NCBI GenBank assembly: GCA_040755755.1
Contig: JBFLZW010000045.1
Location: 30,619-81,521, forward strand
DNA from: a bacterium
GTDB taxonomy: Bacteria > SZUA-182 > DTGQ01
DNA length: 50,903 bases
Reading direction: 5' to 3'
Made by a program: the position numbers and the translations under genes. The notes below the pieces were generated by a model. It was not told where the DNA came from and ran no database searches. It was given only the letters and a program-made list of their open reading frames with translations. This document shows positions 1-40,940 of this stretch, in pieces. The first letter of the stretch is position 1. The number at the start of each line of letters is the position of its first letter.

Positions 1-2
1 TG

Positions 3-431
3 GATACTCTCAATGACAACTTTCAAAACAGGGTGGATACTCTCGATGAGAGCTTTCAAAACAGGGTGGATACTCTCAATGACAACTTTCAAAACAGGGT
101 GGATACTCTCGATGAGAGCTTTCAAAACAGGGTGGATGCTCTCAATGACAACTTTCAAAAAAAGATTGATGCTCTCAATGACAACTTTCAAAACAGGGTG
201 GATACTCTCGATGAGAGCTTTCAAAAAAAGGTGGATGCTCTCAATGACAACTTTCAAAAAAAGATTGATGCTCTCAATGACAACTTTCAAAAAAAGGTGG
301 ATACTCTCAACGAGAGCTTTCAATGCAAGATTGATGGCCTGGCCGCTGATTTCCATCGCTGGACCAGTATCCTGGCGGAGGATTTCCAGCATAAGCTGGA
401 TATTGTGATTGAAGGCCATCAGATATTGAAT
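3..431 (+). repeat. Tandem 33-bp in-frame coding repeats
   Basis: Thirteen consecutive 33-bp units read in frame. Units 1-10 (3-332) are almost identical at DNA level and come in two alternating versions differing at about six bases (AATGACAAC versus GATGAGAGC in the middle). Units 11-13 (333-431) keep the protein period but not the DNA identity. The array continues to the left edge of the window, so the full copy number is unknown. The DNA identity points to recent expansion by slippage or unequal recombination. Confidence 0.9.
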
Positions 432-716
432 GAAAAAATCGATCGCCTGGAAAAAGGCCAGATGGAGCTTTCCGCCAGGGTTGATAAACTGGAATTGATA
501 AGCCTCAGACTGGAACAGCGACAGGCAAAACTGGAACAGCGACAGGCCAGTCTTGAGCAACGGCAGGCTGATCTGGAACAAGAGATCAAGGCGGTAAAAG
601 AAGAATTAGGAAAGAAAATTGATGCGGTAGCTGCTGACCTCGCTGCCCACCGGACCGATACTGAAATACATAAAGCAGGCTATCGGGTATGTGACAACAA
701 GGATTACAGGACCTGA
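3..716 (+). CDS. Coiled-coil protein with 11-residue repeats (5' end outside window)
   Basis: The reading frame is open from the first bases of the window to a TGA at 714-716, so the true start probably lies upstream. The first ten units are almost identical 11-residue repeats of the type DTLNDNFQNRV, alternating with DTLDESFQNRV, then three degenerate units (for example DGLAADFHRWT). An 11-residue period (3-4-4 hydrophobic spacing) is typical of hendecad, slightly right-handed coiled coils. After residue 130 the pattern changes to heptads, including three LEQRQA units, and the protein ends in a charged helix and a short polar tail. No signal peptide or membrane segment is visible in the part present. 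The role is unknown; a structural or tether protein is a guess. A C-terminal domain beyond the coiled coil is absent. Confidence 0.75.
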   Translation, partial: DTLNDNFQNRVDTLDESFQNRVDTLNDNFQNRVDTLDESFQNRVDALNDNFQKKIDALNDNFQNRVDTLDESFQKKVDALNDNFQKKIDALNDNFQKKVDTLNESFQCKIDGLAADFHRWTSILAEDFQHKLDIVIEGHQILNEKIDRLEKGQMELSARVDKLELISLRLEQRQAKLEQRQASLEQRQADLEQEIKAVKEELGKKIDAVAADLAAHRTDTEIHKAGYRVCDNKDYRT

Positions 717-825
717 TAACTGCTTATGCTTGTGATAAGCATAGTTGGTTACAGCGTAAAAACTCAAGAGGCAAACACTCTGGGGTGTCTGCCCCTTTCT
801 CACCTCCCATGAGTTAAAATTCCCG

Positions 826-990
826 CTACTTCTCCCCAAGCTCTTTCTTGAGGGATTCGAGGGTGTTTCTCTTGGCCTGTTCTACAGATTCTTTGGCAGC
901 CTGGGCTGCATTTTCAAAATCTTTGGCAGTGATATTCCTTGAATCTCCCATATTGTCAGATAGTTTACCACACCCGCACGTATAGCACAT
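826..990 (-). CDS. Small cysteine-rich N-terminus protein, 54 aa
   Basis: The ATG at 988-990 has a strong ribosome binding site (GGGAGGTG, about 6 bases upstream), which favours this start over an upstream one that would add 29 residues. The protein begins MCYTCGCGKL, with three Cys in the first seven residues, then a DNMGDSRNIT stretch and an amphipathic charged helix to the C terminus. Small proteins with an N-terminal CxxCxC and an NIT segment occur widely in anaerobic and sulfur bacteria as uncharacterised proteins (from memory). The Cys cluster suggests metal binding or redox activity, but this is inference. It is monocistronic, with about 330 bp of gene-free DNA before the divergent nitroreductase. 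Confidence 0.7.
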   Translation of the reverse strand: MCYTCGCGKLSDNMGDSRNITAKDFENAAQAAKESVEQAKRNTLESLKKELGEK

Positions 991-1317
991 AGTCTTCACC
1001 TCCCTTCCCCAGCCAGTTTTTGGATATAAGCCAGATGCTCCCTTTGGTGTAATCACCCCGCTTTCCAAGTTCATCATTCTATCGGTTTTTTTCTTTAAAA
1101 GAAACGGCCATTTCTCCTCAAAATAGAGAGATCAACCAATGTCTTTGTTTTTTCCGACAAAGAGTAAGAGGCCGGGCGTGAAGACTGCATGGCCCTCTCC
1201 GGTTGTTGCTTTTAACTGAAATTTGGGATAGACTGCTACCGAGCAGGTTATTGCTTCGGCTTGGAGAAAAGTATAACCTGATCCTGAAAAAGTATAACCT
1301 TTAAGGGAGAGAATATA
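991..1317. other. Gene-free stretch between divergent genes
   Basis: About 327 bp between the small Cys protein (minus) and the nitroreductase (plus). It holds the upstream signals of both genes, including the three AGGTTAT/ATAACCT elements listed separately. No further ORF or RNA could be supported. Confidence 0.5.
1245..1300 (+). promoter_or_regulatory. Direct and inverted AGGTTAT/ATAACCT elements upstream of the nitroreductase
   Basis: A direct repeat, GAAAAGTATAACCT at 1266-1279 and GAAAAAGTATAACCT at 1286-1300, has its cores exactly 21 bp apart (two helical turns). An inverted half site, AGGTTAT, lies at 1245-1251. The second copy ends 17 bases before the start codon of the nitroreductase. 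The helical phasing is typical of tandem regulator binding sites. No regulator gene is adjacent. Confidence 0.4.
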
Positions 1318-1878
1318 ATGGAGGATGCAAGATCATATCTGATTGATGAACAACCAGCGCCTGACCTGCTCCCTTACCTGAAAGGGAGAAGATCTATCAG
1401 GAAGTTCAAACCTCAGTCTGTGCCCCGGGAGTTGATTGACAAGATCATGGAAGCGGGCACCTGGGCACCTTCGGCGGGTAATGTCCAGCCGTGGTATCTC
1501 TATCTTATTTTTAACCGTGAGCTAAAACAAAGGCTCGCTCAGGCGGCTTTAGAGCAGCGGTTTGTCGGAAAAGCTCCTCTGGTCATTGTGGTCTGTGCTG
1601 ATAAAAGCCGGGCCCAATCAAGCTATGGGATACGAGGAGAAACCTTATATTGTATCCAGGATACTGCCTCGATGGTCCAGAACATGCTGCTTGAGACATT
1701 CAGCCTCGGACTGGGAGGCTGCTGGGTAGGGGCATTCCGGGAGGAAGATGTAAAGGCGGCTCTGGATATGCCTCACCATCTGCAGCCTGTGGCCATCCTG
1801 CCCATCGGCTACCCTGATGAAAAGCCCGGTCCGCGAACGAGACGAGATTGGCGGGAAACAGTGAAAGTTATCGAATAG
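1318..1878 (+). CDS. Nitroreductase family FMN oxidoreductase
   Basis: A 186-residue protein with nitroreductase-fold hallmarks: RRSIRKF near residue 25 (phosphate contacts to FMN), APSAGNVQPW near residue 50, and GLGGCWVGAF near residue 130, close to the isoalloxazine site. The length fits the short single-domain nitroreductases that work as FMN-binding homodimers using NAD(P)H. The natural substrate cannot be read from the sequence; members reduce nitroaromatics, quinones, flavins or enones. An AGGGAGAG Shine-Dalgarno precedes the ATG. Monocistronic, convergent with the mutY-like gene. It probably acts in the cytoplasm, since no signal peptide is present. Confidence 0.88.
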   Translation: MEDARSYLIDEQPAPDLLPYLKGRRSIRKFKPQSVPRELIDKIMEAGTWAPSAGNVQPWYLYLIFNRELKQRLAQAALEQRFVGKAPLVIVVCADKSRAQSSYGIRGETLYCIQDTASMVQNMLLETFSLGLGGCWVGAFREEDVKAALDMPHHLQPVAILPIGYPDEKPGPRTRRDWRETVKVIE

Positions 1879-1928
1879 GGGTTTTTCGGATAAGGCGAAA
1901 ACGGCGACCAGCATGGTTCATTACTTCA

Positions 1929-2780
1929 TTATCTTATGCTGAACCGGCCGTTCTCCTGGCAAATGAAACCCTCTTGCTGCAACTGGTCCAGGCTTGTTTT
2001 TACCTTCCGGGGATTCATATTCACCTCCTGCATGATCTCACTTTCGGAAAGGTTTGGCCTGGCAAGTAAAATCTTCAGGATTTTTCCCCGCACCTGCCGG
2101 TTGGAGCCCGCAAAAGGTGACTGGAGCTGATAGTGAGCGCTTTTCCTGTTCGGATTCCGGAGTTCTTTTTTCAGCTTAACTCCATAATCCATCAGTGCAT
2201 AATACCATTGCCGGGGATTGGACGGATCCAGGGTTTGCGCGACCAGGGGAAGAATCTCAGCATCTTTGACCTTGTCCCGATGGGTGAAAAAGAAATGGAT
2301 AAATACCCGGCGGATGTTGGTTTCAATAAAAACTGCGGGCTTGTTGAAGGCAAAAGCAGCGATTGCCGAAGCTGTCGGACGGCCGATTCCCGGCAAGGTT
2401 ACCAATAATTCCACATCTGAGGGAAGATTTCCGCCAAACTCTTCCATGACCATCCGGGCGGCTGACTTCAGGGACATTGCCCGGCGGTTATACCCCAAGC
2501 CCTGCCACAGGCTCAGTACCTGGTGAAGAGGCGCGCTGGCAAGTGAGGCGAAATCGGGAAAGGTAGCGATAAACTGTTCATACTTTTGCGCGACTCTCTC
2601 TGTCTGCGTCTGCTGAAGCATGATTTCCGAAACCAGAATGTGGTATGGATCGTGGGTCATCCGCCAGGGGAACGAGCGGGCATGCTCTTGATAATAGCTG
2701 TAAATGACCCTTTGAAACCTGCTGATGCACTCCGGGGTTAAACCGTTTTCGCCCGGCAGGCACTCGGTGGGTAACTTCAT
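1929..2780 (-). CDS. MutY-like HhH-GPD DNA glycosylase lacking the iron-sulfur cluster
   Basis: A 283-residue helix-hairpin-helix/GPD glycosylase. ILVSEIMLQQTQT (residues 48-60) carries the MutY-type catalytic Glu at 52, and LPGIGRPTASAIAAF (129-143) is the HhH and following helix. The conserved Asp of MutY (LDGNVKRV) appears as Glu153 in IETNIRRV. After ALMDYG (195-200), where MutY and EndoIII have a C-x6-C-x2-C-x5-C [4Fe-4S] loop, there is no cysteine. The C-terminal NUDIX-like 8-oxoG recognition domain is also absent, replaced by a short winged-helix-like tail. It probably removes a mispaired base in repair, but adenine specificity is uncertain. GGAGAG precedes the ATG. Last gene of the wbqC-like / rnhA / mutY-like run; the gap to rnhA is 44 bp. 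Confidence 0.82.
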   Translation of the reverse strand: MKLPTECLPGENGLTPECISRFQRVIYSYYQEHARSFPWRMTHDPYHILVSEIMLQQTQTERVAQKYEQFIATFPDFASLASAPLHQVLSLWQGLGYNRRAMSLKSAARMVMEEFGGNLPSDVELLVTLPGIGRPTASAIAAFAFNKPAVFIETNIRRVFIHFFFTHRDKVKDAEILPLVAQTLDPSNPRQWYYALMDYGVKLKKELRNPNRKSAHYQLQSPFAGSNRQVRGKILKILLARPNLSESEIMQEVNMNPRKVKTSLDQLQQEGFICQENGRFSIR

Positions 2781-2824
2781 TTTTCTCTCCGGGTAGGTAT
2801 AGTCAAGAGGCTTTAGGATGGATT

Positions 2825-3313
2825 TTACGTGTCGTTCCGTCCGGCCAGGGCGGCTTGATATCCGCTGTCTTCAGGCAGATTGGCCCGTGCGGCAGCCGTA
2901 GTGGCTAACTCATCGCAGCGCTCATTTTCCGCCTGACCATTATGCCCCCGAATCCAGCGAAATTCCACCGAATGGAGCTGAAGCAGTTTCAACAGCCGCT
3001 CCCAGAGGTCGGCATTCGGCACCCGCTCTTTCTTGTCCCGCACCCAGCCAGTGGCTTTCCAGCGGTAGACCCATCCCTTGGTTATGCTGTCCACCAGATA
3101 CCGGGAATCGCTGGTGAGAATGACCCGGCACTTTTCCTTGAGAGCCTCAAGTCCGGTGATGGCTGCCAGGATTTCCATCCGGTTGTTGGTTGTTCTCCGG
3201 AATCCTCCGGATAGCTCCTTGCGGTGCTCCCCGTAGCGCAGGATAACCCCGTATCCCCCTGGCCCCGGATTGCCGGTGCAGGCCCCGTCAGTATAAATTT
3301 GCACTTCCTTCAT
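2825..3313 (-). CDS. rnhA: Ribonuclease HI
   Basis: A 162-residue RNase HI that cleaves the RNA strand of RNA-DNA hybrids. The catalytic residues are all present: Asp9 (YTDGAC), Glu47 (NNRMEIL), Asp69 (LTSDSRY) and Asp134 (ERCDELA), plus the loop His124 (RGHNG). The basic handle region ([14 protein letters not shown]) is retained, as in E. coli RNase HI. Length is normal with a short C-terminal extension. AAGAAGGG precedes the ATG. It lies between the wbqC-like gene (61 bp upstream) and the mutY-like gene, plausibly co-transcribed. Confidence 0.95.
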
Positions 3314-3374
3314 AACCCTTCTTCCCTCTCCGGCATCACGCCTGATGGCGTGATGATGCCGATGGTGATGATGC

Positions 3375-4103
3375 TCATGGTGACGATGATGATGCCTCCG
3401 GCGGGATCATCCTGAAAGGTGATCCAGCCAGAATATTATAACTGCGGGGGCCACAGGTAAGCAAGAGGTCCCACGCTGAAAGATTATCGATAAATTCACC
3501 CCACAACTGGGGATAGACCGGATGATGAAACCGGAAATACTGAACGCCAATTCCTGCCTTGGCAAAAGCCTCCTCCTGGATAAATTTCCGGGCTTCGTAT
3601 TGGGCGAGGTAGGTAGATGCCTTGAGCCTGTGGCAGATTTCAATCAGCCGCTCGTTCCCGGTGGCCTCCACTGCCAGGGATGAGCTGAGCTGCATTTCAG
3701 TGGGGACTGAGAGGGAAGTCTTCAGATAGTTGATGATCCTCAGGTTAAAATCAGCCAGTCCAGAGATTTTCCGCCGATAGGTCTCTTCCCAAAAAGGCCG
3801 GTGGTCCTCCCAGTAAGGAGCGTGGGCATAAGCTGTGCTCAGGCTGGCCAGGTGTTTCCTCGGCCAATCCTCGTCGTAGCAGATCTGCACCTCATTGATT
3901 TTTTGCAGCCCCTTTCCCTTTCTCCATACCGGAATGGTGAGCCACAAGGTCCCCTGATGAAACTTGAACCGGTTTCTGCTGACCCAGGTGGTGCCCCGGG
4001 GAAACTGCACATCATCCAGAAGGACCAGAAGGTCGCAGTGCAGGGCTTTAAAGAAAAACCCCAGCCAGGGGGAAAAGATTAGTTGATGAGTTGATATGAT
4101 CAT
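3375..4103 (-). CDS. WbqC-like family protein
   Basis: A 242-residue protein beginning [20 protein letters not shown], followed by [18 protein letters not shown]. This N-terminal pattern (HQ-x-x-x-PWLGFF, then a DDVQF and a W-x-NRN-like motif) is that of the WbqC family, often found in O-antigen or sugar-modification loci and without a firmly assigned reaction. The last residues (PEASSSSP) are encoded by a GATGATG-like microsatellite, suggesting the C terminus has drifted by slippage. The GT9 glycosyltransferase a few kb away is the only other envelope-sugar gene here. The Shine-Dalgarno is weak. Confidence 0.72.
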
Positions 4104-4197
4104 GGGGGCTGTCCTTCTGGTGATTGCAGGGAATCAGATATTATTTGCATACTCTAGTGTGAAAAAGTATTATTAAATTTTTCGATAGATATTTACC

Positions 4198-4227
4198 TTG
4201 ACAATCCCAATAGCCTTTAGATATACT
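4198..4227 (+). promoter_or_regulatory. Sigma-70-type promoter of the three-gene cassette
   Basis: TTGACA at 4198-4203 and TATACT at 4222-4227 are separated by 18 bp. The predicted transcript starts near 4234, giving a 5' leader of about 190 bases that includes the inverted repeat ahead of the first gene. Confidence 0.6.
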
Positions 4228-4240
4228 CTAAAATTAGAGT
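4225..4240 (+). promoter_or_regulatory. Operator-like palindrome overlapping the -10 box
   Basis: ACTCTAAAATTAGAGT is a perfect palindrome with 7-bp arms and a 2-bp spacer. It covers the end of the -10 box and the predicted start site, a classical repressor position. A related imperfect element, ACTCTAGTGT, lies at 4151-4160, upstream of the -35 box. Confidence 0.5.
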
Positions 4241-4331
4241 TATAATGGCTATGCAAGACGTCTAATATAAGACTATAATATATCTAACAATGTATTGTAT
4301 ATGCTTGAAAAGAATATTGCAAGTCTTAATT

Positions 4332-4410
4332 AATTATCCTAAATTCAACATCGAGGCTTAAAAAAGTAAGAAATAACAATTATTGAATTTAGGATAATTT
4401 TAGGATAATT
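4332..4410 (+). repeat. Long inverted repeat just before the first cassette gene
   Basis: AATTATCCTAAATTCAA at 4332-4348 is the exact reverse complement of the 17 bases at 4383-4399. A second partial copy of the right arm (TTAGGATAATTAAT, 4400-4413) follows directly and can also pair with the left arm extended leftward, so two alternative stems are possible. The right arms end about 12 bases before the ATG and sit next to the ribosome binding site, so RNA folding or protein binding here could control translation. Confidence 0.6.
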
Positions 4411-4425
4411 AATGAAAGAGAGATC

Positions 4426-5229
4426 ATGAACGAATATAAGGATGATTTGCCAAAATATAGAAATCCTCCTGTGGTAGAAGTTGCTCTTGGTGTATTTTTT
4501 GAAGATATTAAGAGTATGAAGTTACCACATTCTGGAGTTTTTTGGCAGAAAATTCGAAAGGAATTTCCTCGAGTTACTCATGCAGATCCATTAGGTATTT
4601 TAGAGGATGATATAACGAAGCTACCACTGCCACGTGTTTGGTTCATTAATGAGCATGAAACAAATCTCATCCAATATCAAACAAACTGCTTTTTTTTTAA
4701 TTGGAGAAAAATCCCTTTTGCTGAAAAATACCCACGGTATTCTACTGTCAAAAAAGCTTTTGAACGGTATCATAATCTATTTATAGAATTTCTCCATGAA
4801 AATAACATGGGAAAGATCAGTTATAAGCAATGTGAACTTACATATGTAAATCATATTCCCAAAGATAATATTTGGAATTCTCCAGCAGACATTAACCAGA
4901 TTATGCGAGATATAATATGGACAAAAAATGAGAATCGTTTCCTACCTGAACCGAAAAGTATCCAGTGGTTTTCAATATTCTCTTTGCCAGATGATTTTGG
5001 AGAGTTGAAAATATCACTAAAGCATGGAAAGCGAATATCAGATGATTATCCACTTTTTATACTTGAAATTTCGGCTAAGGGATTAGGTGGGGATCGTACT
5101 CCAGAGAGAATATCTGAATGGTTCGATTTAGCACACGAATGGATAGTAAATGCCTTTGCGGACATAACGAGCGATGATATGCAAAAAAAATGTTGGCTTC
5201 GGCAATCAAAAACTAAAAGGAGAAAATAA
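4426..5229 (+). CDS. TIGR04255-like protein, first gene of a three-gene cassette
   Basis: A 267-residue protein starting with KYRNPPVVEVALGVFFED, the N-terminal signature of the sporadically distributed TIGR04255 proteins (N/R-PP-[IL]-VEA-x-[IF]). The rest is an alpha/beta protein with no enzyme motif, signal peptide or membrane segment that I can recognise. The family has no assigned function that I know of; its patchy distribution suggests accessory or defence genes. GAAAGAGAG precedes the ATG. The gene is only 3 bases from the next one, implying one operon. Codon use is much more AT-rich than the flanking wbqC-like and Mur ligase genes, a sign of horizontal acquisition. Confidence 0.7.
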   Translation: MNEYKDDLPKYRNPPVVEVALGVFFEDIKSMKLPHSGVFWQKIRKEFPRVTHADPLGILEDDITKLPLPRVWFINEHETNLIQYQTNCFFFNWRKIPFAEKYPRYSTVKKAFERYHNLFIEFLHENNMGKISYKQCELTYVNHIPKDNIWNSPADINQIMRDIIWTKNENRFLPEPKSIQWFSIFSLPDDFGELKISLKHGKRISDDYPLFILEISAKGLGGDRTPERISEWFDLAHEWIVNAFADITSDDMQKKCWLRQSKTKRRK

Positions 5230-5232
5230 AGC

Positions 5233-5910
5233 ATGGCGACTGCAAGCATTGAAAATGCTGTCCATACGTTTGCTTACCAACCTCCTTTTGAGTGTATCAG
5301 TTCCAGAGAGTATTCATATTTCAATAAAGAATGGACCCGACCCTTAGAGAATTTAAAGTTAAAGTCAAAGTTAAGACACAAAGCACGACGGTCGCAAGAA
5401 GAAGAAACATGGACGAGTACTAATACAGAATACGAAATAGAAGAGAGAAAAGACCCTTTTGAAGTGCTTGATGCTCAATTACCTCCAACAGATAAGGTTA
5501 AAAGAATAATTAAAATTGAATATGCAAGATGCATTAGGGTGCTTCCATACAAAGATCGTATATTGAATCGACTTAAGTGGCTATTAGATGCTACCTTGGA
5601 TGAACCTGAAGCAGAAAATTACCTTAATCCTGACTCTGTGAATTTATTTTTGGAATTCATGAGATCAAAAGAGAGGTTAAAATATCCTGATATCATTTTA
5701 TCTCCATCAGGTAACGTTTCAACGTGTTGGCGGATAGATGCGAATCGAAGCCTTTGTATTGAATTCCTCTGTGGACAATCCATTAGATTTGTTGTTTTCA
5801 TTCCTAATCCCCTTCGAACTTTGCGTATTACTGGAACTATTCCGATTAGCATGTTGTGGGATACTTTGAGACCATATAATGTTGAACAGTGGATTACAAA
5901 TGGTCGATAG
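5233..5910 (+). CDS. Uncharacterised cassette protein 2
   Basis: A 225-residue protein of unknown function, starting at the first ATG after the TIGR04255-like gene (3-bp gap). The N-terminal half is polar, with a basic region around residues 40-60 (KLKSKLRHKARR). The C-terminal third has an alternating beta-like pattern: YPDIILSPSGNVSTCWRID, then SLCIEFLCGQSIRFVVF, then ITGTIPI. Such a P-x-I-x-x-S-x-x-G-x-x-x-x-x-W pattern followed by a short beta unit is, from memory, seen in small accessory proteins encoded beside the type of protein made by the third gene. No catalytic motif or membrane helix was seen. Base composition is AT-rich like its two partners. Confidence 0.65.
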   Translation: MATASIENAVHTFAYQPPFECISSREYSYFNKEWTRPLENLKLKSKLRHKARRSQEEETWTSTNTEYEIEERKDPFEVLDAQLPPTDKVKRIIKIEYARCIRVLPYKDRILNRLKWLLDATLDEPEAENYLNPDSVNLFLEFMRSKERLKYPDIILSPSGNVSTCWRIDANRSLCIEFLCGQSIRFVVFIPNPLRTLRITGTIPISMLWDTLRPYNVEQWITNGR

Positions 5911-6337
5911 TCGTGAGCTATCTCATTCAGAGCATATAGCTCGATATTGTAAGCCAACATCATTAACTGAAGACAAGCTACCTACGTGGTCTTCCTTCTG
6001 CCTTCGGTCAGGTGAATTATCACTCTCAGTAAATTGGTTAGAATTTCTTGATCCTAACAACAGAGACACTGCAATAGAAAAGCTTCGACAAATTTTTACT
6101 AAAAAATTTACTGGAGGAGTCAGTGCCAATGCCAAATTGGCTGTTTTGAATGTAGGTGAAACGATTACTCATGTAAGCAATGAGAACGGTCGTTTGTTAA
6201 AAGTTTTTCAGGAGCCACTAGATAACGATCCTTCCCATTGCGGTATACACAACCTCCCAGCAACAGAAGAAGAAGCAATGCTCATTGGCATGCTCATTGC
6301 CGAAAAGGTATGCGAACTTTATAGTGCTCGAAGCTGA
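5900..6337 (+). CDS. Uncharacterised cassette protein 3
   Basis: A 145-residue protein if the ATG at 5900 is used, overlapping the end of the previous gene by 11 bases; an in-frame ATG at 5879 would add seven residues. The overlap suggests translational coupling. The sequence has HSEHIARYCKPTSL near the N terminus, LSLSVNWLEFLD in the middle and DPSHCGIHNLP near the end. I recall similar small uncharacterised proteins in accessory regions of many bacteria, always with the ARYCKP and SVNWLE blocks, but know of no function. It ends 48 bp before the converging Mur ligase gene, closing the AT-rich segment. Confidence 0.65.
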   Translation: MVDSRELSHSEHIARYCKPTSLTEDKLPTWSSFCLRSGELSLSVNWLEFLDPNNRDTAIEKLRQIFTKKFTGGVSANAKLAVLNVGETITHVSNENGRLLKVFQEPLDNDPSHCGIHNLPATEEEAMLIGMLIAEKVCELYSARS

Positions 6338-6384
6338 GAACCCTGTAACTTAATATCAGGAATAAATCTCTAAACGGATTCATT

Positions 6385-7875
6385 TTATTTCACCTTCTTC
6401 AATAATTTTTCCTCCAGTAACCTCAGCACCTCCCGGCAAAACGAAGTTAGAGTATCATCACGGGCACCCATGACCAGCACCGTATCACCGGGCCTGGTTT
6501 CCTCGACCAGGGGTTTCAGCAGGGATTGCCGGTTTTCGCCGTATCGTGCATCTCTCCCTCTTGCCTGAATGGCCTGGGCAAGGTCCTGCGAGGAAATATC
6601 GCGGGTAGTGGTGCCCCCGGCATAGAAGATTTCGGGCAGAAAGATTACGTCCTGATCCGAGGTCCCCGAAGCCAGTGAGTCAATCAGCTCTTCCCGGAAA
6701 AACCGGGTCGGGCCAAAGCCGTGGGGCTGGAAGAGGACGATCAGCCTTGATTTCAGCAGGCTGGCGGCCTTAAGGGTAGCGGCAATCTTATCGGGATTAT
6801 GGGCAAAATCATCAATCACCCGGATTCCCCGGACCTCGCCGATCAGGTCGAATCTGCGGCTGATCCCCTGAAAATCAGCCAGTCCCGCTGCAATATCGGC
6901 CATTGGCACGCCCAGATAGCTGGCCGCGGCTATGGTGGCCAGGGCATTGGCGATATTGTGGAGCCCAGGCACCCGCAGGCGAAAGGGTTGTCCCTGGCAC
7001 TTGAAGGTACTGCCGAAGGGTTCCAGGTTGATCAGATCGGCCTGATATGCCGCATCGCCCGATGCAGCGGATACGTTCGACGCAGCAGATAGCATGCCGG
7101 TCGGCGCACCCTTCAGGGAGAAGGTAATGGTTCGGTCCTGATCCAGGGTTAATGAGGCGATGTTCGGGCAGTCTCCATTGACCACGATCTTTTCTCTGGT
7201 CTGGCTGGCAAAGGTCTGGAAAAGCTTCTTGAGCTCAGGAATGTCTTTATGGTCTTTGGAGATATTGGTGATAATGGCCAGGGCGGGACAATAATTGACG
7301 ATCGAGCCGTCACTTTCGTCGCTTTCGGCAACGAGCGTATTCGAGGAGCCGGAGCGCATATTGTTTGGCCGCCCTCCACGCGGGAAGTTCTTCATGGCTC
7401 CGCCATTGATGATGGTCGGGTCCCGGCCTGCCTGGGTCAAAACATGGCCGAGCATGCCGGTGACCGTACTTTTGCCGCTCGTTCCGGCAACGGCGATTCC
7501 GTAGCTGTTGTTCAGCAGCTCTGCCAGGATCTCAGCCCGCTTCCGGACAGGGATGTTGAGCTGCCGCGCCCTGGCTACATCCGGGATGCTCTCTTCCACG
7601 GCTGTTGATACCACCACGGCCTCAAGATCCTGGTTCACTCCGCTGCCATCCTGGGGAAAAAGCTGAATGCCGCCTGATGAGTGAATGCCGCCTGATGAGA
7701 ATGGTGAGAATGGTGAGAATGATGAGAGCGATGAAAGCCAATCGAACAGGGGTAAATTCACTCCAAGATCGTAGCTGCGGTCCGAGCCGCTGACTTTGTT
7801 TCCCCTGCCGATCAAAACCTGCGCCAGGGCACTCATACCGCTTCCTCCCACCCCGACAAAGTGATACGAAGACAT
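6385..7875 (-). CDS. murC: Mur ligase family protein, MurC/Mpl-like
   Basis: A 496-residue Mur ligase. The N-terminal Rossmann motif is GVGGSGMSALAQ, the ATP-binding loop AGTSGKSTVTG spans residues 130-140, and there are later HNIANALA and DDFAHNPDKI motifs. MurC adds L-Ala to UDP-MurNAc; Mpl recycles murein tripeptide. The loop reads GTSGKST instead of the GTHGKT usual in MurC, and the gene is not in a dcw cluster, so a MurC-like paralogue is possible. Residues 48-71 are a low-complexity insertion of Ser, Phe, Pro and Gly encoded by short DNA repeats at about 7660-7735. GGAGG lies 10 bases before the ATG. Confidence 0.75.
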   Translation of the reverse strand: MSSYHFVGVGGSGMSALAQVLIGRGNKVSGSDRSYDLGVNLPLFDWLSSLSSFSPFSPFSSGGIHSSGGIQLFPQDGSGVNQDLEAVVVSTAVEESIPDVARARQLNIPVRKRAEILAELLNNSYGIAVAGTSGKSTVTGMLGHVLTQAGRDPTIINGGAMKNFPRGGRPNNMRSGSSNTLVAESDESDGSIVNYCPALAIITNISKDHKDIPELKKLFQTFASQTREKIVVNGDCPNIASLTLDQDRTITFSLKGAPTGMLSAASNVSAASGDAAYQADLINLEPFGSTFKCQGQPFRLRVPGLHNIANALATIAAASYLGVPMADIAAGLADFQGISRRFDLIGEVRGIRVIDDFAHNPDKIAATLKAASLLKSRLIVLFQPHGFGPTRFFREELIDSLASGTSDQDVIFLPEIFYAGGTTTRDISSQDLAQAIQARGRDARYGENRQSLLKPLVEETRPGDTVLVMGARDDTLTSFCREVLRLLEEKLLKKVK

Positions 7876-7960
7876 AGATTACATCCTCCATTCCTGCTAA
7901 CCGGTCCTGTTGGTCCTGCGATTGGAATCGCGTTTTTCAAGCAGTAATATTAACCGAGTA

Positions 7961-8050
7961 CACGTGGCGATAAATCCATGGCCAGTCAGGCTCGACCAAG
8001 AGATCGCGTGCGGTATTTGGTGGGGCAAAAAAGCAGCCCCACCCTACATG
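7961..8050 (-). repeat. Dispersed repeat copy A, with hairpin
   Basis: About 90 bp that recur, inverted and with a few substitutions, at 37488-37578. Read on the minus strand the element begins with GTAGGGTGGGGC, TGCTTTTTT, GCCCCACC, forming an 8-bp stem, then a conserved tail through AAATACCGCACGCGATCT. It overlaps the last bases of the GT9 gene and lies ahead of the Mur ligase promoter region. The hairpin could stop transcription or stabilise a 3' end, but the element is non-coding and behaves as a mobile or REP/MITE-like repeat. Confidence 0.8.
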
Positions 8051-9009
8051 TTCTCGCTCCCTTTCTCATGGGGGATAGCCATCCTCCACTCCCTCGTTTT
8101 CCTTTGGGGGGCGAAGGAGAATTGGGCCAGTGTATCCTGTATTGCACGAAAAGCCAGGTCCTCAGTCTGTGCCCGCAAGTTTACGGCATGAGGGCCGATA
8201 ACGCCCCACATATCGGGATCAGTGACTTTATACAGGGCTATGGTTGGTGTGCCCAGAACTGCGGCCAGGTGGCTTGCTCCTGAGTCATTTCCGATATAAA
8301 GCGATGCACCGGCCTGCAACCGGCCCAATTCCTCCACATCATGCGGCCGCTCGACCCTCTCTCCGGACAGATACCGTGCCATATCCTCACCTTCTGCCGG
8401 TCCCAGAATAAATCGCACTTCGGGAAAACCCTGCTGCCGCAATTCATCAGCCAGGTCACGGTAAAATCGCGGAAGATAGTTCTTGGCCGGGCTGCCGCTG
8501 CCCGGATGAATCAGAGCATACTCACCCCTCCTGATATTCAAGGGAAGGCAAAAAGAGCATTGAATCTCATTAACGAAAAGCCTGCTCTCATCAGAAGGAA
8601 ACGAGGTGGAGACCTCGACAGGAAAATATTCCCGGACAGCCAGACAATGATAGACAGCCACATGCACCCGTTTTTGAGGGAAGGGGGGAATGAGGGCCAC
8701 GGGAAGGCGTGCGGATTTTCTCAGCAGGTCACGCACTGCCTGCCCCTCGGCAAGCCAGAGCACAGCCCCTATTGGCGAGCCGAGCACGGCGGGGATGCTG
8801 CGGCCATCAAAAAGACCGCTCATGCCGGATGATTCGGCATGGCAGCAGGTGTCAAGGAGGCCCAGTCCGATAGCCAACCGCATATATTCAGTGCGGCCAA
8901 GGCCGACAAATTGCACATCCGGCAAACTCTGTCTGAGGGCATAAAGTGCAGGCCAGGTTAGAATAAAATCACCAAGTGCCCCGCGATGACAAATCAGAAA
9001 CCGATCCAT
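8044..9009 (-). CDS. Glycosyltransferase family 9 (heptosyltransferase-like)
   Basis: A 321-residue GT9 protein. The N-terminal motif CHRGALGDFILTWPAL is the usual G-ALGD signature, ALIHPGSGSPAKNYLP is the central HPGS block, and YIGNDSGASHLAAVLGTPTIAL is the nucleotide-sugar binding segment. GT9 enzymes transfer heptose or related sugars from ADP-heptose to lipopolysaccharide core on the cytoplasmic face of the inner membrane. The sugar donor here cannot be assigned. No ribosome binding site is obvious. The 3' end runs into dispersed repeat copy A, which may have supplied the final codons. Confidence 0.88.
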   Translation of the reverse strand: MDRFLICHRGALGDFILTWPALYALRQSLPDVQFVGLGRTEYMRLAIGLGLLDTCCHAESSGMSGLFDGRSIPAVLGSPIGAVLWLAEGQAVRDLLRKSARLPVALIPPFPQKRVHVAVYHCLAVREYFPVEVSTSFPSDESRLFVNEIQCSFCLPLNIRRGEYALIHPGSGSPAKNYLPRFYRDLADELRQQGFPEVRFILGPAEGEDMARYLSGERVERPHDVEELGRLQAGASLYIGNDSGASHLAAVLGTPTIALYKVTDPDMWGVIGPHAVNLRAQTEDLAFRAIQDTLAQFSFAPQRKTREWRMAIPHEKGSENM

Positions 9010-9109
9010 AAGCCAATACTGTGTCTTTTCGTCAGAAGAAAGGAGTCGGTGACGAATAGAGAACCATCGATACTTCTGAATTCTGACTCCTGAATTTTCC
9101 CATACTTAC

Positions 9110-9141
9110 TATAGCAGAAAGAGAGTATAGCAGAAAGAGAG
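9110..9141. repeat. 16-bp perfect tandem duplication
   Basis: TATAGCAGAAAGAGAG occurs twice in direct contact (9110-9125 and 9126-9141), followed by a third start (TATGAAG). Non-coding. It lies upstream of the trpB promoter and has no obvious role. Confidence 0.8.
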
Positions 9142-9216
9142 TATGAAGTATAGTCCGATTCCTGACGATAAATCAACTACAGAGGCTATCATACCGGAAA
9201 TAGTTAAAAATCGTAC

Positions 9217-9246
9217 TTGACAAATTTCTTTAAATATTTTTATAGT
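9217..9246 (+). promoter_or_regulatory. Promoter of trpBA
   Basis: TTGACA at 9217-9222 and TATAGT at 9241-9246 with an 18-bp spacer. The start site would be near 9253, giving a leader of about 100 bases before the trpB ATG. No Trp-rich leader peptide or classical attenuator was seen. Confidence 0.7.
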
Positions 9247-9353
9247 ATGAGGGGTATAAAGCACGTGAATCAACGCTCTGTGCTTAAAACCCGAAAATGC
9301 ATTACCGTATGCATTAATGTACTCGTGATGTAATACAGGCAAAAGGATATCTC

Positions 9354-10589
9354 ATGACCACGAAACGTGGGTATTACGGTTGTTTCGGCGGGGCTTTCAT
9401 GCCGGAAATTCTGATAGCGACGCTGTCTCAACTGGAGAAGGATTTTTATGCGGCCAAAAGCGATCCCGGCTTCTGGTCTGAATATACCTCCCTGATGTCA
9501 TCGTATTCCTGCCGCCCTACGCCTCTGACTCTGGCTGAAAATCTGACGCGCTACTTCGGAGGGGCCAGGATCTATATCAAGCGGGAAGACCTGAACCATA
9601 CGGGAGCGCATAAAGCCAATAATGTCATGGGGCAGGGTCTTTTGGTCAAACGGATGGGGAAAAAGCGGGTCATTGCCGAGACCGGTGCCGGTCAGCATGG
9701 AGTGGCCACCGCCACCATGGCCGCCCGGTTCGGGCTGGACTGCACGGTGTATATGGGAGAAGTCGATGTCGAGCGGCAGCGGCCTAATGTCTTCTGGATG
9801 GAGCAGTTGGGAGCAACGGTGGTGTCGGTGAAGGACGGCTCCCGCACCCTGAAGGATGCCATGAACGAAGCCATGCGGGACTGGAGCGCCAGTATGGAGA
9901 CGACCCACTATGTACTGGGCACGGTCTGCGGTCCCCATCCCTTTCCGGAGATGGTCGCCTATTTTCAATCCATTATTGGCCAGGAAGTAAAGCAGCAGAT
10001 GCTCCAGCGGGAAGGACGGCTGCCGGACCGGATATACGCCTGTGTCGGCGGGGGGTCCAATGCAGTTGGCATATTTACTGCATTTCTTGAAGACAGGCAG
10101 GTGGAACTGCATGGTGTCGAAGCCGGGGGGAAGGGATTGGCAAGCGGACATCATGCCAGCCGCCTCGCTTCCACGGACGCGCGCGTGGGAATTGCTCAGG
10201 GGTATAAGACTTTCTTTTTACAGGATGAGGAAGGACAGATGAAGGAAACTTATTCCGTAGCTGCCGGACTGGATTATATAGGAGTGTCCCCGATATTGGC
10301 CAACTTGCGAGAAACCGGCCGGATCCAGTTCCACGCAGCTACGGATAATGAAGTAATTGAAGCGGTGAGACTGACGATGAAAAAAGAGGGTATCATTCCT
10401 GCCCTTGAATCTGCGCATGCCTTTGCCTACGCTTATCGTGAGGCCCCAACCTTGAGTAAAGATACAATTCTGGTCATCAATCAGTCCGGGCGGGGGGATA
10501 AAGACATTTTCACCATAGCCGATGCTCTGGGGGATGCCAAGTGGAAGGAGTTTATCATCAAAAAGGCCAGGGGGTATGAATCTCACTGA
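9354..10589 (+). CDS. trpB: Tryptophan synthase beta chain
   Basis: A 411-residue PLP enzyme that condenses indole with L-serine to give tryptophan. The PLP lysine is Lys87 in NHTGAHKANN and the catalytic Glu109 is in AETGAGQHGVATA, the same numbers as in the Salmonella enzyme. The phosphate-binding loop GGGSNAVG and the C-terminal SGRGDKD are present. Differences from the usual type are SCRPTPL for GRPTPL and AGLDYIGVSPI for AGLDYPGVGPE in the communication-loop region, so this is a divergent TrpB1. AAAAGGA precedes the ATG. The trpA ATG overlaps its end, so the pair is translationally coupled. No other trp gene is present in the window. Confidence 0.92.
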   Translation: MTTKRGYYGCFGGAFMPEILIATLSQLEKDFYAAKSDPGFWSEYTSLMSSYSCRPTPLTLAENLTRYFGGARIYIKREDLNHTGAHKANNVMGQGLLVKRMGKKRVIAETGAGQHGVATATMAARFGLDCTVYMGEVDVERQRPNVFWMEQLGATVVSVKDGSRTLKDAMNEAMRDWSASMETTHYVLGTVCGPHPFPEMVAYFQSIIGQEVKQQMLQREGRLPDRIYACVGGGSNAVGIFTAFLEDRQVELHGVEAGGKGLASGHHASRLASTDARVGIAQGYKTFFLQDEEGQMKETYSVAAGLDYIGVSPILANLRETGRIQFHAATDNEVIEAVRLTMKKEGIIPALESAHAFAYAYREAPTLSKDTILVINQSGRGDKDIFTIADALGDAKWKEFIIKKARGYESH

Positions 10590-11340
10590 ATATATTCGGG
10601 AAAAAAGAAAAACCAAAGACATTCTGTGCATGGCCCATCTGGTGTGCGGGTATCCGGATTTTGCAGCCAATAAGGAAGTCATCCGGATCATGGTCGAGAT
10701 GGGTGTCGATCTGATCGAGCTTCAGATACCCTTCAGCGAGCCCACCGCTGACGGCCCTATGATTTTAAAAGCAAATCAGCTTTCCCTCCAGCGGGGAACC
10801 CGGGTCAGGGATTGTCTTTCCCTGATGAGGGAGGTATCAAGCCAATATCCCATTCCCTTTCTCTTTATGACTTACTATAACATACTTTTCAGCCGCGGTG
10901 TGGATGCCTTTGTTCAGGAAACGCGACAAGCCGGGGGAGTGGGGTTCATTATTCCGGATATTCCGCCTGAAGAGGGCGAAGAATATTTCAATGCCTGTCA
11001 TAATAATTATATCTCCCCTATTCTGCTTATGACTCCCACCACCAGTCCGCAGCGGCTGAGTCTGATCGCCGAAGCTGGTGATGGGTTTTTCTATTGCGTA
11101 GCCCGCAAAGGAGTGACCGGGGCACAAACTCATCTGTCACAGGAGACCGATGAGTTCATCCGTCGCTGCCGGAAGGTGACGGATTTACCTCTGGCCATGG
11201 GCCTTGGCATCTCCCGGCGGGAAGATCTCGACTACCTGCGCGGCAAGGTGGACATTGCTGTCATCGGCAGCGCTATTCTTCGTACCTTTGAACAAGGAGG
11301 ATACCAGGCGTTACAGAGTTTCTTGGAAAAATTATCCTAA
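10576..11340 (+). CDS. trpA: Tryptophan synthase alpha chain
   Basis: A 254-residue TIM-barrel subunit that splits indole-3-glycerol phosphate into indole and glyceraldehyde phosphate. The catalytic acids are kept: Glu48 in LIELQIPFSEP and Asp59 in TADGP. The segment YCVARKGVTGAQ and the phosphate site VIGSAIL are also present. I chose the ATG at 10576 because it follows a GGGGG Shine-Dalgarno and matches the family N terminus; an ATG at 10522 would add 18 residues lying inside trpB. It overlaps trpB by 14 bases. The variant motif IPFSEPTADGP (usually VPFSDPLADGP) fits a divergent subtype. Confidence 0.92.
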   Translation: MNLTEYIREKRKTKDILCMAHLVCGYPDFAANKEVIRIMVEMGVDLIELQIPFSEPTADGPMILKANQLSLQRGTRVRDCLSLMREVSSQYPIPFLFMTYYNILFSRGVDAFVQETRQAGGVGFIIPDIPPEEGEEYFNACHNNYISPILLMTPTTSPQRLSLIAEAGDGFFYCVARKGVTGAQTHLSQETDEFIRRCRKVTDLPLAMGLGISRREDLDYLRGKVDIAVIGSAILRTFEQGGYQALQSFLEKLS

Positions 11341-11537
11341 AGGAGTCTTGGAAGCAGGGAGGAAAGAGTATCCCTTTCCGGCTTTCAGATTCGCTCGTGC
11401 AGACCGACGATGAGGACCTCTTAGGGGCAGGGAATCTCTACCCTGGATTTCATGTCTCATCCAGGAGCCGCCGTCTTCTGGCTGGGAGTCGATACTTTGG
11501 AGATGTTTTGGATAATCCCATAAAGAGAGTTTGGAGA

Positions 11538-12011
11538 ATGATCAGAAACGAAAGAAACAATTTTGTGACTGCGATAGAAAAGTTGATCATGAAAGAGGAA
11601 GTAAGGAAGGACCTCCAGTCCTCCAGTCAACGAATCCTGGCTGAACTGCCTTCAGGATTGCTTTGGGAGTGGGATGACCGGTTTGATATACCCCTTTTGG
11701 TCTTTCCCAGAGATATGGAGGAAGAAATCGGTGCAGTAATTCATCGCAACTTTCCTAATCAGTGGGACCTCAATTCCATCAAAACGGCACCGCCGGTCAT
11801 TCGAAAATTATTGGATAAATCCTTTGGTATCCGAGTCGGGCAAAGGGTGTTTGCCACGGATACCAATCAAGAAGCGTTTCTTTTCGCCTTATATTGGCCA
11901 TGGGAAGACGGGGCTACAATCTCCCTGCGAATCAGCGTGACTGGAAAAGGAATCATAGGGGCCGACCAGGAAATGGTTGGAGAATATCTTCGCCAGTGGT
12001 TTCGGCTGTAG
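11538..12011 (+). CDS. Hypothetical protein, 157 aa
   Basis: A protein of unknown function. I chose the ATG at 11538, preceded by TTTGGAG, because the extra 47 codons from an upstream start look non-coding and have no binding site. It begins MIRNERNNFVTAIEKLIMKEEV, then has SGLLWEWDDRFDIPLLVFPRD in the middle and a beta-rich C-terminal half (AFLFALYWPWEDGATISLRI). It is soluble, with no signal peptide, membrane helix or recognised motif. It lies about 200 bp downstream of trpA and may share its transcript; a functional link to tryptophan is not supported. Confidence 0.55.
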   Translation: MIRNERNNFVTAIEKLIMKEEVRKDLQSSSQRILAELPSGLLWEWDDRFDIPLLVFPRDMEEEIGAVIHRNFPNQWDLNSIKTAPPVIRKLLDKSFGIRVGQRVFATDTNQEAFLFALYWPWEDGATISLRISVTGKGIIGADQEMVGEYLRQWFRL

Positions 12012-12085
12012 TGATTTGGTTTCAGTTGTAATAGGTTGCCCTTAGACGGTTTCGACTTTCGACGATCTGTGAATTGAATACGTGA

Positions 12086-12123
12086 GGATATCCTGCCCCG
12101 GGAAAAAGAGGGACAGGATATCC
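12086..12123. terminator. Stem-loop between convergent genes
   Basis: GGATATCCTG (12086-12095) pairs with CAGGATATCC (12114-12123), and the stem is extended by CCC/GGG with one mismatch. It lies between the hypothetical gene (plus) and the NtrC-type regulator (minus). There is no long T-run on either side, so it may act as a bidirectional or Rho-assisted end. Confidence 0.5.
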
Positions 12124-12163
12124 TTTGCAATGCATCACCCAAGCCTGTCCGTGTGAGTCTTCT

Positions 12164-13600
12164 TTACTCCCCGCTTCCTGAGATCCCGTATCGTTCCATC
12201 TTGTTTCGCAGGGTATTGCGGTTGATGCCGAGGAGGGATGCGGCCTGGACTTTATTGCCGGAGGTTTTGCGGATAGCCCGGTCGATCATTTCCTTTTCCA
12301 GGAGGGATATGGCATCGATGTCGGGCCTGTCTTTCACGGTGGTGGTAATCAGATCGAATACCTGGTCCAGCAGGGGGTCAAGACTCTGGGTCAGGTCTGC
12401 CCTGACCGGGAAATCGCTCTCTCTGGCTGACCTGATCTGGTCGGGAAGGTCCTCGATCAGGATCTCGTTTCCCTTGCAGATTACGATGGCCCTTTTCAGG
12501 ACATTTTCCAGCTCTCTGACATTTCCCGGCCAGTGGTAGGCCAGCAGCAATTCCATGCACTCGGGCCTGATGCCGACGATATCCTTGTGCAGCTCTTTGG
12601 TGAAGCGGGAGAGAAAATAGTGAGCCAGAAGGGGGACATCCCCTTTTCTCTCCCGCAGGGGAGGAAGGTACAGGGTGAGAACATTCAGCCGGTAGTAGAG
12701 GTCCTCCCGGAACCACCCTTCCCGGACACCCTTTTCGATATGCTTATTCGTGGCCGCGATCAGCCGGACATCCACGGTGATGTTTTCGGAGCTGCCCAGC
12801 CGCTGGATTTCTCCTTCCTGAATTACCCGCAGGATCTTGGCCTGGATATGGATCGGCATATCACCGATTTCGTCAAGGAAGATCGTCCCCCGGTGGGCCT
12901 GCTCAAACCGGCCGATCCTTTTATATTCCGCGCCGGTGAAAGCGCCCCGTTCATGACCGAACAGCTCGCTTTCGAGGAGGTTTTCCGGGATAGCGGCACA
13001 GTTGATGGAGATAAAGGGGTAGTTACTCCGGCGGCCATGATGGTAAATGGCCCTGGCTACCAGTTCCTTCCCTGTGCCGCTCTCTCCGATCAGTAAAACA
13101 TTGACGTCCCGTCCGGCGATCTGGCCGATTGTTTTATAGACATCCTGCATCCGGGCGGAGTCTCCGATAATGCTTTCTCCAGCCCAGTTCTTGTCATTGA
13201 AGGGCGGACAGGAAACCGGGCTCTTGGCGGACCTGGCCACTTCAAGGGCTTTTTGGATGGTTTCCCACATCCTGGCCATGTCAAAGGGCTTTTGAATATA
13301 ATCATAGGCCCCCAGTTTCATCGCCCGGATAGCCCGCTCGGTGGTGCCGTGGGCCGTGACCATGATGGCCAGAAACTTCGGGTTCTTCTGTTTGATCGCT
13401 TCCAAAAGGTCCAGGCCCGACAGTCCGGGCATGACAATGTCAATCAGGGTCAGGTCAGGTGACAGCCCCTGTTCCAGAAGGTCTAAAGCCTCCCGGCCAT
13501 TGCGGGCTGTCACGGCCTCGAATCCTTTCTCCTCGAATATTCGTTTCAGGGAATACCGGATTCCCCGGTCATCATCCACAATGAGTATGGTCTCAGGCAT
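12164..13600 (-). CDS. NtrC-family sigma-54 response regulator
   Basis: A 478-residue three-domain regulator. The receiver (1-120) has Asp54 as phosphorylation site (LIDIVMPG) and Lys104. The AAA+ domain (about 140-375) has Walker A GESGTGKE (172-179), the sigma-54 contact loop GAFTGA (219-224) and Walker B IFLDEI (240-245). The C-terminal Fis-type helix-turn-helix (about 430-475) contains NKVQAASLLGINRNTLRNKM. It should activate RpoN-dependent promoters when phosphorylated. It starts 36 bp after the Amt-histidine kinase gene, so the two very likely form a two-component pair. AAGGA precedes the ATG. Targets are unknown, but the ammonium-sensing partner suggests nitrogen control. Confidence 0.93.
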   Translation of the reverse strand: MPETILIVDDDRGIRYSLKRIFEEKGFEAVTARNGREALDLLEQGLSPDLTLIDIVMPGLSGLDLLEAIKQKNPKFLAIMVTAHGTTERAIRAMKLGAYDYIQKPFDMARMWETIQKALEVARSAKSPVSCPPFNDKNWAGESIIGDSARMQDVYKTIGQIAGRDVNVLLIGESGTGKELVARAIYHHGRRSNYPFISINCAAIPENLLESELFGHERGAFTGAEYKRIGRFEQAHRGTIFLDEIGDMPIHIQAKILRVIQEGEIQRLGSSENITVDVRLIAATNKHIEKGVREGWFREDLYYRLNVLTLYLPPLRERKGDVPLLAHYFLSRFTKELHKDIVGIRPECMELLLAYHWPGNVRELENVLKRAIVICKGNEILIEDLPDQIRSARESDFPVRADLTQSLDPLLDQVFDLITTTVKDRPDIDAISLLEKEMIDRAIRKTSGNKVQAASLLGINRNTLRNKMERYGISGSGE

Positions 13601-13636
13601 GGTAGTGTTTCCTTCAATACGTTATTGTTTCCTCAA

Positions 13637-40316: not shown

Positions 40317-40445
40317 AGAGCTTGATTTATCGTTACCCGGAGTGATAACATATAATTATTATCAACTAGAAAAAAAGGAAAGTTGAGATAGGGAATTACG
40401 GGGTATTATATTTTATTAAGTATATGAGAAGAGGAGGTCGATGGA

Positions 40446-40940
40446 ATGCTGCTTGTGGAGATGAAAGTTCGTGGAATAACCCTGGATCCAGTGACCAACA
40501 TGCCGATCATTATCTTACGGGATCTTGAAAATAAGAAATCCTTGCCAATTTGGATTGGGATTTTTGAAGCCAATGCTATAGCCTCGGAAATGGAAAAGTT
40601 ATCTCCTCCCCGTCCCATGACCCATGACCTGCTGAAAAATCTGATTGACGGGTTGAAGTCAAAAGTTAAACGAGTCATCGTGACGGACTTGAGGAACAAT
40701 ACTTTTTTTGCTACTATTGAGCTGGAAAGAAATGGCACGGGTGTAGCCATTGATTCCCGTCCGAGTGATGCCATTGCTCTCGCCCTGCGTGCCAATGCAC
40801 CGATTCTTGTTTCGGAAGAGGTCATCAAAAAGGCAAAGACTATCGATATGACCCAGGAAAAAGATATTGAAGACAAAGAAAAACTGAAAGAATGGCTCGA
40901 TAAGTTGAAACCGGAGGATTTTGGCAATTATGAGATGTAA
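40446..40940 (+). CDS. Bifunctional nuclease family protein (DUF151)
   Basis: A 164-residue DUF151/BFN protein. Conserved blocks are LVEMKVRGITLDPVTNMPIIIL, LPIWIGIFEANAIASEME, RPMTHDLLKNLI and the C-terminal SRPSDAIALALRANAPI. Plant members have DNase and RNase activity; the bacterial role is unclear. The frame has an extension ending in a charged helix. GGAGG lies 9 bases before the ATG. It may be the first gene of a run with the VanZ-like and HAD genes. Confidence 0.92.
   Translation: MLLVEMKVRGITLDPVTNMPIIILRDLENKKSLPIWIGIFEANAIASEMEKLSPPRPMTHDLLKNLIDGLKSKVKRVIVTDLRNNTFFATIELERNGTGVAIDSRPSDAIALALRANAPILVSEEVIKKAKTIDMTQEKDIEDKEKLKEWLDKLKPEDFGNYEM

What the first reader, a model, noticed from the sequence alone, without database searches (positions are those of the whole stretch)
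4104..6384. AT-rich three-gene cassette with its own control region (candidate undescribed system)
A TIGR04255-like gene (4426-5229), an unknown gene (5233-5910) and a third unknown gene (5900-6337) are spaced 3 bp and overlapping, all AT-rich, and set between GC-richer housekeeping genes on the opposite strand. None has a recognised function. Compact structure, foreign composition and private promoter are what one expects of an acquired defence, stress or toxin-type module. The function is not inferable from motifs.
Basis: partly seen in the sequence, partly recalled or inferred. Interest (0 to 1): 0.8.

Follow-up and report, generated by a model that had tools for sequence, protein, structure and literature searches.

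The report
Mobile three-gene cassette, toxin-like, undescribed
Three adjacent genes of unknown function turn out to be a compact cassette that recurs as a unit in distantly related bacteria, on a plasmid and on viral contigs; it probably works as a phage-triggered or addiction-type toxin module, but no function has been shown.

Summary
Three genes (4426-5229, 5233-5910, 5900-6337) form one AT-rich operon (35.5% GC against 50% for the window), inserted between wbqC and a Mur ligase. A relative has those two genes 277 bp apart with no cassette, and carries the cassette elsewhere.

Gene 1 is TIGR04255, an uncharacterised family; its predicted fold is TBP-like and duplicated. Genes 2 and 3 match no family in Pfam, NCBIfam, PADLOC or PHROGs. 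The gene 3 model is confident but matches no solved fold.

The same three genes in the same order recur in Desulfobacterota, Acidobacteriota, Planctomycetota, Pseudomonadota, Actinomycetota, one plasmid and three viral contigs, usually more AT-rich than their flanks. Genes 2 and 3 are an inseparable pair. The pair also occurs without TIGR04255, inside type I restriction-modification operons or with gene 2 fused to helical repeats. TIGR04255 also heads other operons ending in PemK or HEPN genes. Gene 3 is the only gene found broken (4 of 35), and has conserved Arg, Ser and His.

Best reading: gene 3 is the effector, gene 2 its neutraliser, TIGR04255 an exchangeable sensor or chaperone. This resembles toxin-antitoxin-chaperone defence but uses unrelated proteins. 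The roles are inferred. Defence genes are not enriched nearby.

The parts
4198..4227 (+). best promoter-like site, TTGACA-18-TATACT
   Evidence: 11 of 12 consensus matches; number of such sites in the region not above chance
4332..4399 (.). perfect 17-bp inverted repeat AATTATCCTAAATTCAA / TTGAATTTAGGATAATT; the right arm is followed by a second copy of TTTAGGATAAT (4399-4409): possible operator or hairpin in the leader
   Evidence: 0 of 1000 dinucleotide shuffles; not found in the two nearest relatives
4426..5229 (+). gene 1: TIGR04255 family protein, 267 aa, predicted duplicated TBP-like fold; proposed exchangeable sensor or chaperone
   Evidence: NCBIfam 58.4 bits, cut-off 30; AlphaFold2 pLDDT 85.6; Foldseek best matches TBP, probability 0.98-1.00 but TM only 0.26-0.40
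5233..5910 (+). gene 2: 225 aa, variable N-terminal part, conserved C-terminal domain P-x-I-x-x-x-P-x-G-x-[IV]-x-x-x-W; proposed neutraliser/adaptor of gene 3
   Evidence: no Pfam, NCBIfam, PADLOC or PHROG match; family alignment; always paired with gene 3
5900..6337 (+). gene 3: 145 aa, conserved Arg15, Ser43, His113; proposed effector (toxin-like) enzyme
   Evidence: AlphaFold2 pLDDT 86.2; no PDB fold match with E below 0.17; conservation in 50 rows R 92%, S 88%, H 86%; the only gene of the trio seen broken (4 of 35)

Best explanation
The cassette is a horizontally mobile, three-component conflict module. Gene 3 is the effector, a small probable enzyme with an Arg-Ser-His triad that harms or arrests the cell when free. 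Gene 2 is its cognate partner, which binds and restrains gene 3 through its conserved C-terminal domain. Gene 1 (TIGR04255, duplicated TBP-like fold) binds the variable N-terminal part of gene 2, keeps the gene 2-gene 3 complex silent, and releases it when phage or stress removes or occupies TIGR04255, as the dedicated chaperone does in toxin-antitoxin-chaperone defence. Shown here: operon, mobility, conserved trio, inseparable gene 2-gene 3 pair, exchangeability of TIGR04255. Inferred: toxicity, neutralisation, sensing, defence.
For: Trio conserved in five phyla in fixed order. Among TIGR04255 loci searched, 24 have both gene 2 and gene 3 directly downstream, none has only one, and 209 kb of control DNA gave no hit. 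Distances of gene 2 and gene 3 correlate best (r 0.68), gene 1 less (0.44-0.49), all Mantel 0/5000. The gene 2 domain plus gene 3 pair also occurs without TIGR04255: alone, fused to helical repeats, or fused to a 250-aa N-domain between HsdM and HsdS of a type I R-M operon. TIGR04255 also heads operons whose last gene is PemK or HEPN. Only gene 3 is found broken: 4 of 35 against 0 of 70 for genes 1 and 2, Fisher about 0.011 (arithmetic mine). Full cassette on three viral contigs, one of them between a capsid-like gene and a prohead-protease-like gene, and on a plasmid next to a relaxase. GC below flanks in 18 of 19 loci. Empty site in a relative.
Against: No toxicity, binding or phage data. 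No known toxin or antitoxin domain in genes 2 or 3. PADLOC neighbourhood not enriched. TIGR04255 is not SecB-like: Foldseek gives TBP, not SecB. The best PDB match of gene 3 is meaningless, so the enzyme claim rests on conserved residues only. The four breaks in gene 3 are in metagenome-derived or draft genomes and one is at a run of C, so some may be sequencing errors. The leader repeat is not seen in the two nearest relatives.
Confidence: 0.5

Rival explanations
1. Phage-derived lysogenic-conversion cassette that alters host physiology or excludes other phages by a non-toxic route (for example TIGR04255 as a nucleic-acid or receptor binder), with genes 2 and 3 as accessory binding proteins rather than an inhibitor and a toxin.
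For: Cassette sits as an accessory insert among structural or late genes of viral contigs; gene 1 resembles TBP in fold.
Against: Gene 2-gene 3 pair also sits in R-M operons and stands alone, and TIGR04255 also heads operons ending in PemK or HEPN, which is the pattern of toxin-type modules.
Confidence: 0.2
2. Accessory of restriction-modification: the gene 2-gene 3 pair modulates or guards R-M enzymes (control or back-up killing), and TIGR04255 cassettes are stand-alone derivatives.
For: Three loci have the pair between HsdM and HsdS of type I R-M operons; a C5 DNA methyltransferase-like gene lies about 2 kb from the cassette in the nearest relative.
Against: Most cassettes, the window's included, have no R-M gene nearby; the three R-M loci come from the one phylum in which gene 3 was searched widely.
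Confidence: 0.12
3. Stress-response or regulatory operon in which gene 1 is a DNA-binding autoregulator acting on the leader inverted repeat, and genes 2 and 3 are its co-regulators.
For: TBP-like fold; perfect 17-bp inverted repeat plus tandem copy in the leader.
Against: Repeat not found upstream of the two nearest relatives; no DNA-binding family recognised in any of the three proteins.
Confidence: 0.13
4. Chance neighbours, no system.
For: None of the three has a recognised function.
Against: Same trio, order and strand in five phyla; 24 to 0 co-occurrence; co-varying distances.
Confidence: 0.01

Closest known systems
Toxin-antitoxin-chaperone (TAC) defence: CmdTAC and MqsRAC (PMC9519451)
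   Same: Three short overlapping or adjacent genes; fast-evolving middle gene with a poorly conserved extension; candidate toxin at one end and dedicated partner at the other.
   Different: The partner is not SecB-like (fold search gives TBP), no ADP-ribosyltransferase or MqsR-type toxin found, gene order reversed (partner first, effector last).
TIGR04255 (NCBIfam, 'sporadically distributed' subfamily)
   Same: Gene 1 is a member (58 bits, cut-off 30).
   Different: The family has no described function; no paper in the library mentions it. Here it is placed in at least four operon kinds.
Toxin-type operons headed by TIGR04255 in other genomes (PemK; HEPN)
   Same: TIGR04255 first, small gene second, candidate effector last.
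   Different: Effectors unrelated to gene 3.
TATA-box binding protein fold
   Same: Two repeats of beta-alpha-beta(3-4)-alpha; Foldseek probability 0.98-1.00.
   Different: TM only 0.26-0.40 and 9-10% identity; common descent not shown.

Membership tests
TIGR04255 family | whole-protein score above the curated cut-off over the full model | tested here: met
   58.4 bits against 30, model 1-249 of 252
Toxin-antitoxin-chaperone (TAC) system | SecB-like chaperone | tested here: not met
   gene 1 model: no SecB among the 50 PDB matches listed; TBP-like instead; no SecB family hit
Toxin-antitoxin-chaperone (TAC) system | antitoxin with an aggregation-prone extension bound by the chaperone | not testable with these tools
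   gene 2 has a poorly conserved N-terminal extension; binding untested
Type II toxin-antitoxin system | toxin of a known family | tested here: not met
   gene 3: no Pfam, NCBIfam, PADLOC or PHROG match and no PDB fold
Type II toxin-antitoxin system | toxicity alone, rescue by partner | not testable with these tools
   needs expression experiment
Known anti-phage defence system (PADLOC-DB 2.0.0) | match to a PADLOC model | tested here: not met
   nothing for genes 1 and 2; gene 3 only E 0.048 to a cyclase fragment
Known anti-phage defence system (PADLOC-DB 2.0.0) | location in defence islands | tested here: not met
   8 models matched among 140 neighbours against 6 among 137 controls; defence genes do lie near TIGR04255 in L017 and L018 and near the gene 2-gene 3 pair in L163-L165
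Tripartite TIGR04255-gene2-gene3 cassette (this family) | fixed order, same strand, gene 2 and gene 3 both present | tested here: met
   24 loci with both, none with one only; window included in 35-locus check

The most novel reading that the evidence does not exclude
A previously undescribed class of bacterial immunity: a new-fold effector enzyme (Arg-Ser-His) with an obligate neutraliser, coupled to exchangeable front-end modules (TIGR04255, helical repeats, an R-M-linked N-domain) that decide what triggers it, spread by prophages and plasmids.
Probability: 0.33. Interest if true: 0.82.

Novelty: new variant of a known kind. Interest (0 to 1): 0.62.

Why it matters
TIGR04255 occurs in 7-9% of sampled Pseudomonadota and Actinomycetota species and no paper in the library mentions it. 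If the reading is right, it is a shared front module of several toxin-type operons. Gene 2 and gene 3 would be a new effector-neutraliser pair with no family entry and an unmatched fold, linked to both prophages and restriction-modification. That gives directly testable predictions: which gene is toxic, which residues matter, and who binds whom.

Tried and rejected
Family libraries Pfam, NCBIfam, PADLOC and PHROGs for genes 2 and 3, and Pfam or NCBIfam for their relatives: nothing. PDB by sequence, genes 1 and 3: nothing. PDB by fold for gene 3: nothing below E 0.17; BFVD one unnamed viral protein, E 6e-4. SecB-like chaperone idea for gene 1: fold search gave TBP. Defence-island enrichment: not found. 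Leader inverted repeat as a conserved operator: not found in the two nearest relatives. tRNA as integration site: none in 1-15000. Single-protein genome scan: no relative found, so a three-sequence alignment was used. Phage records: no match. Papers naming TIGR04255: none. ADP-ribosyltransferase/RES reading of the R-S-H residues: considered from memory, no fold support.

Full report
What is there. They are 3 bp apart and overlapping by 11 bp, all on the plus strand, between wbqC (3375-4103) and a Mur ligase (6385-7875) on the minus strand. The stretch 4104-6337 has 35.5% GC and is the most AT-rich of its size in the window (mean 50.6%, sd 3.7). The leader holds a good promoter-like site and a perfect 17-bp inverted repeat with a tandem 11-bp copy that shuffles do not produce. 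No such repeat was found upstream of the two nearest relatives, so I give it little weight.

Acquired. In genome G001 (another genus of the same family) the Mur ligase, wbqC and RNase H genes follow each other with 277 bp between the first two and no cassette. G001 carries its own copy of the cassette on another contig, 68% identical in gene 1. So the site is occupied in one lineage and empty in the other.

Gene 1 is TIGR04255, a family defined by NCBI without function. AlphaFold2 on 11 aligned relatives gave pLDDT 85.6. The chain is two repeats of beta-alpha-beta(3-4)-alpha; Foldseek ranks TATA-binding proteins high (probability 0.98-1.00), but with TM of 0.26-0.40, so this is a resemblance of fold and not evidence of the same function. 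Genes 2 and 3 match nothing in four libraries, and their relatives match nothing in Pfam or NCBIfam. Gene 3 folds confidently (pLDDT 86.2) but has no PDB match with E below 0.17; one unnamed viral protein matches with E 6e-4.

The trio is a unit. A genome scan with a three-sequence alignment of gene 1 found ten loci: Desulfobacteraceae, Planctomycetota, Acidobacteria, Alphaproteobacteria, Pseudonocardia, mycobacteria and others. Most have gene 2 and gene 3 relatives right behind. I then took TIGR04255 loci from 399 Pseudomonadota and 297 Actinomycetota genomes and from the genomes of the first scan, and searched them with profiles of genes 2 and 3. 24 loci have both, on the same strand and directly downstream; none has only one; 209 kb of control DNA has no hit. 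Many of these loci helped build the profiles; L031, L066, L133-L136 and L138 did not seed them. Distance matrices of the three proteins correlate, gene 2 with gene 3 most (0.68), gene 1 less (0.44-0.49), Mantel 0/5000 each.

The core is genes 2+3. A gene 3 profile over the same 399 genomes gave 12 strong hits, all at TIGR04255 loci, and weaker ones, eight of them away from those loci. In these eight, the gene 3 relative is preceded by a gene 2 domain. It stands alone (L154, L155), is fused to helical repeats (L166), or is fused to a 250-aa N-domain lying between HsdM and HsdS of a type I restriction-modification operon (L153/L163, L158/L164, L161/L165). In L157 the gene 2 domain runs off the contig and was read by eye. 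Two of the eight loci lie next to a nucleotidyltransferase-HepT pair or a HepT-like gene. So TIGR04255 is one of several front ends for the same pair.

TIGR04255 is itself a shared module. Besides this trio it heads operons ending in a PemK toxin gene (L011, L045), a HEPN gene (L028; the Thermus plasmid L018 shows a similar reading frame by eye), and a helix-turn-helix-like gene followed by an unknown gene. This is what suggests that the last gene of each operon is the effector.

Mobile. The full trio is on a mycobacterial plasmid beside a mobF relaxase and on three viral contigs: L110 amid tail and late genes, L111 between a prohead-protease-like gene and a capsid-like gene, and L109 with a terminase-like gene and a recombinase-like gene (those neighbour names are read from the sequences by eye). 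GC of the cassette is lower than its flanks in 18 of 19 loci.

Gene 3 looks like the costly part. Over 35 loci, gene 3 is split by a stop or frameshift in four (L019, L008, L009, L054); genes 1 and 2 in none (Fisher about 0.011 by my arithmetic). These are drafts and one break is at a run of C, so this is supporting evidence only. In 50 aligned rows Arg15 (92%), Ser43 (88%) and His113 (86%) stand out, and all three are visible in the distant R-M-linked relatives. That is why I propose an enzyme.

Mechanism proposed. Effector (gene 3), neutraliser (gene 2), exchangeable sensor or chaperone (gene 1). The nearest known logic is toxin-antitoxin-chaperone defence, where loss of a dedicated chaperone frees the toxin (CmdTAC, PMC9519451). 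It is not a member: the SecB-like component was tested for and is absent.

Limits. No function was measured. PADLOC models hit neighbours of 14 cassettes about as rarely as control regions, and the window's own neighbours are housekeeping genes (names read by eye). The paper library holds no mention of TIGR04255, but preprints are not in it, so priority cannot be judged fully.

Noticed in passing
G000:C69 about 39140-40560 (L006:7142-8563): The genome's second TIGR04255 cassette (175-aa, apparently shortened TIGR04255 + 117-aa + 175-aa genes) lies inside the trp operon, between trpD-like and trpC-like genes (read by eye); different partners from the window's cassette.
   Followed up: partly
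L011:1486-2948; L045:1500-2858: TIGR04255 followed by a small gene and a PemK/MazF toxin gene, in two different phyla (Pfam).
   Followed up: partly
L028:2387-3956; L018:5995-7700: TIGR04255 followed by a small gene and a HEPN gene (L028 by Pfam; on the Thermus plasmid by eye only).
   Followed up: partly
L043, L044, L046, L047, L051, L053, L055, L059, L068: Another TIGR04255 operon kind: a second gene, helix-turn-helix-like in some and with a hydrophobic N-terminal stretch in others, then a protein with an N-T-C-D or S-C-N-L-like motif; those tested are nameless in Pfam.
   Followed up: no
L163-L165: Type I R-M operons with a 380-aa fusion (unknown N-domain + gene 2 domain) and a gene 3 relative between HsdM and HsdS; L163 also has an FRG-domain gene between HsdS and HsdR.
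   Followed up: partly
window 33-713: Protein made of tandem repeats of about 12 residues (DALNDNFQKKVD).
   Followed up: no
window 7650-7780 (minus strand): Low-complexity Ser/Phe/Gly-rich insert (LSSLSSFSPFSPFSSGGIHSSGG) in the N-terminal part of the Mur ligase.
   Followed up: no
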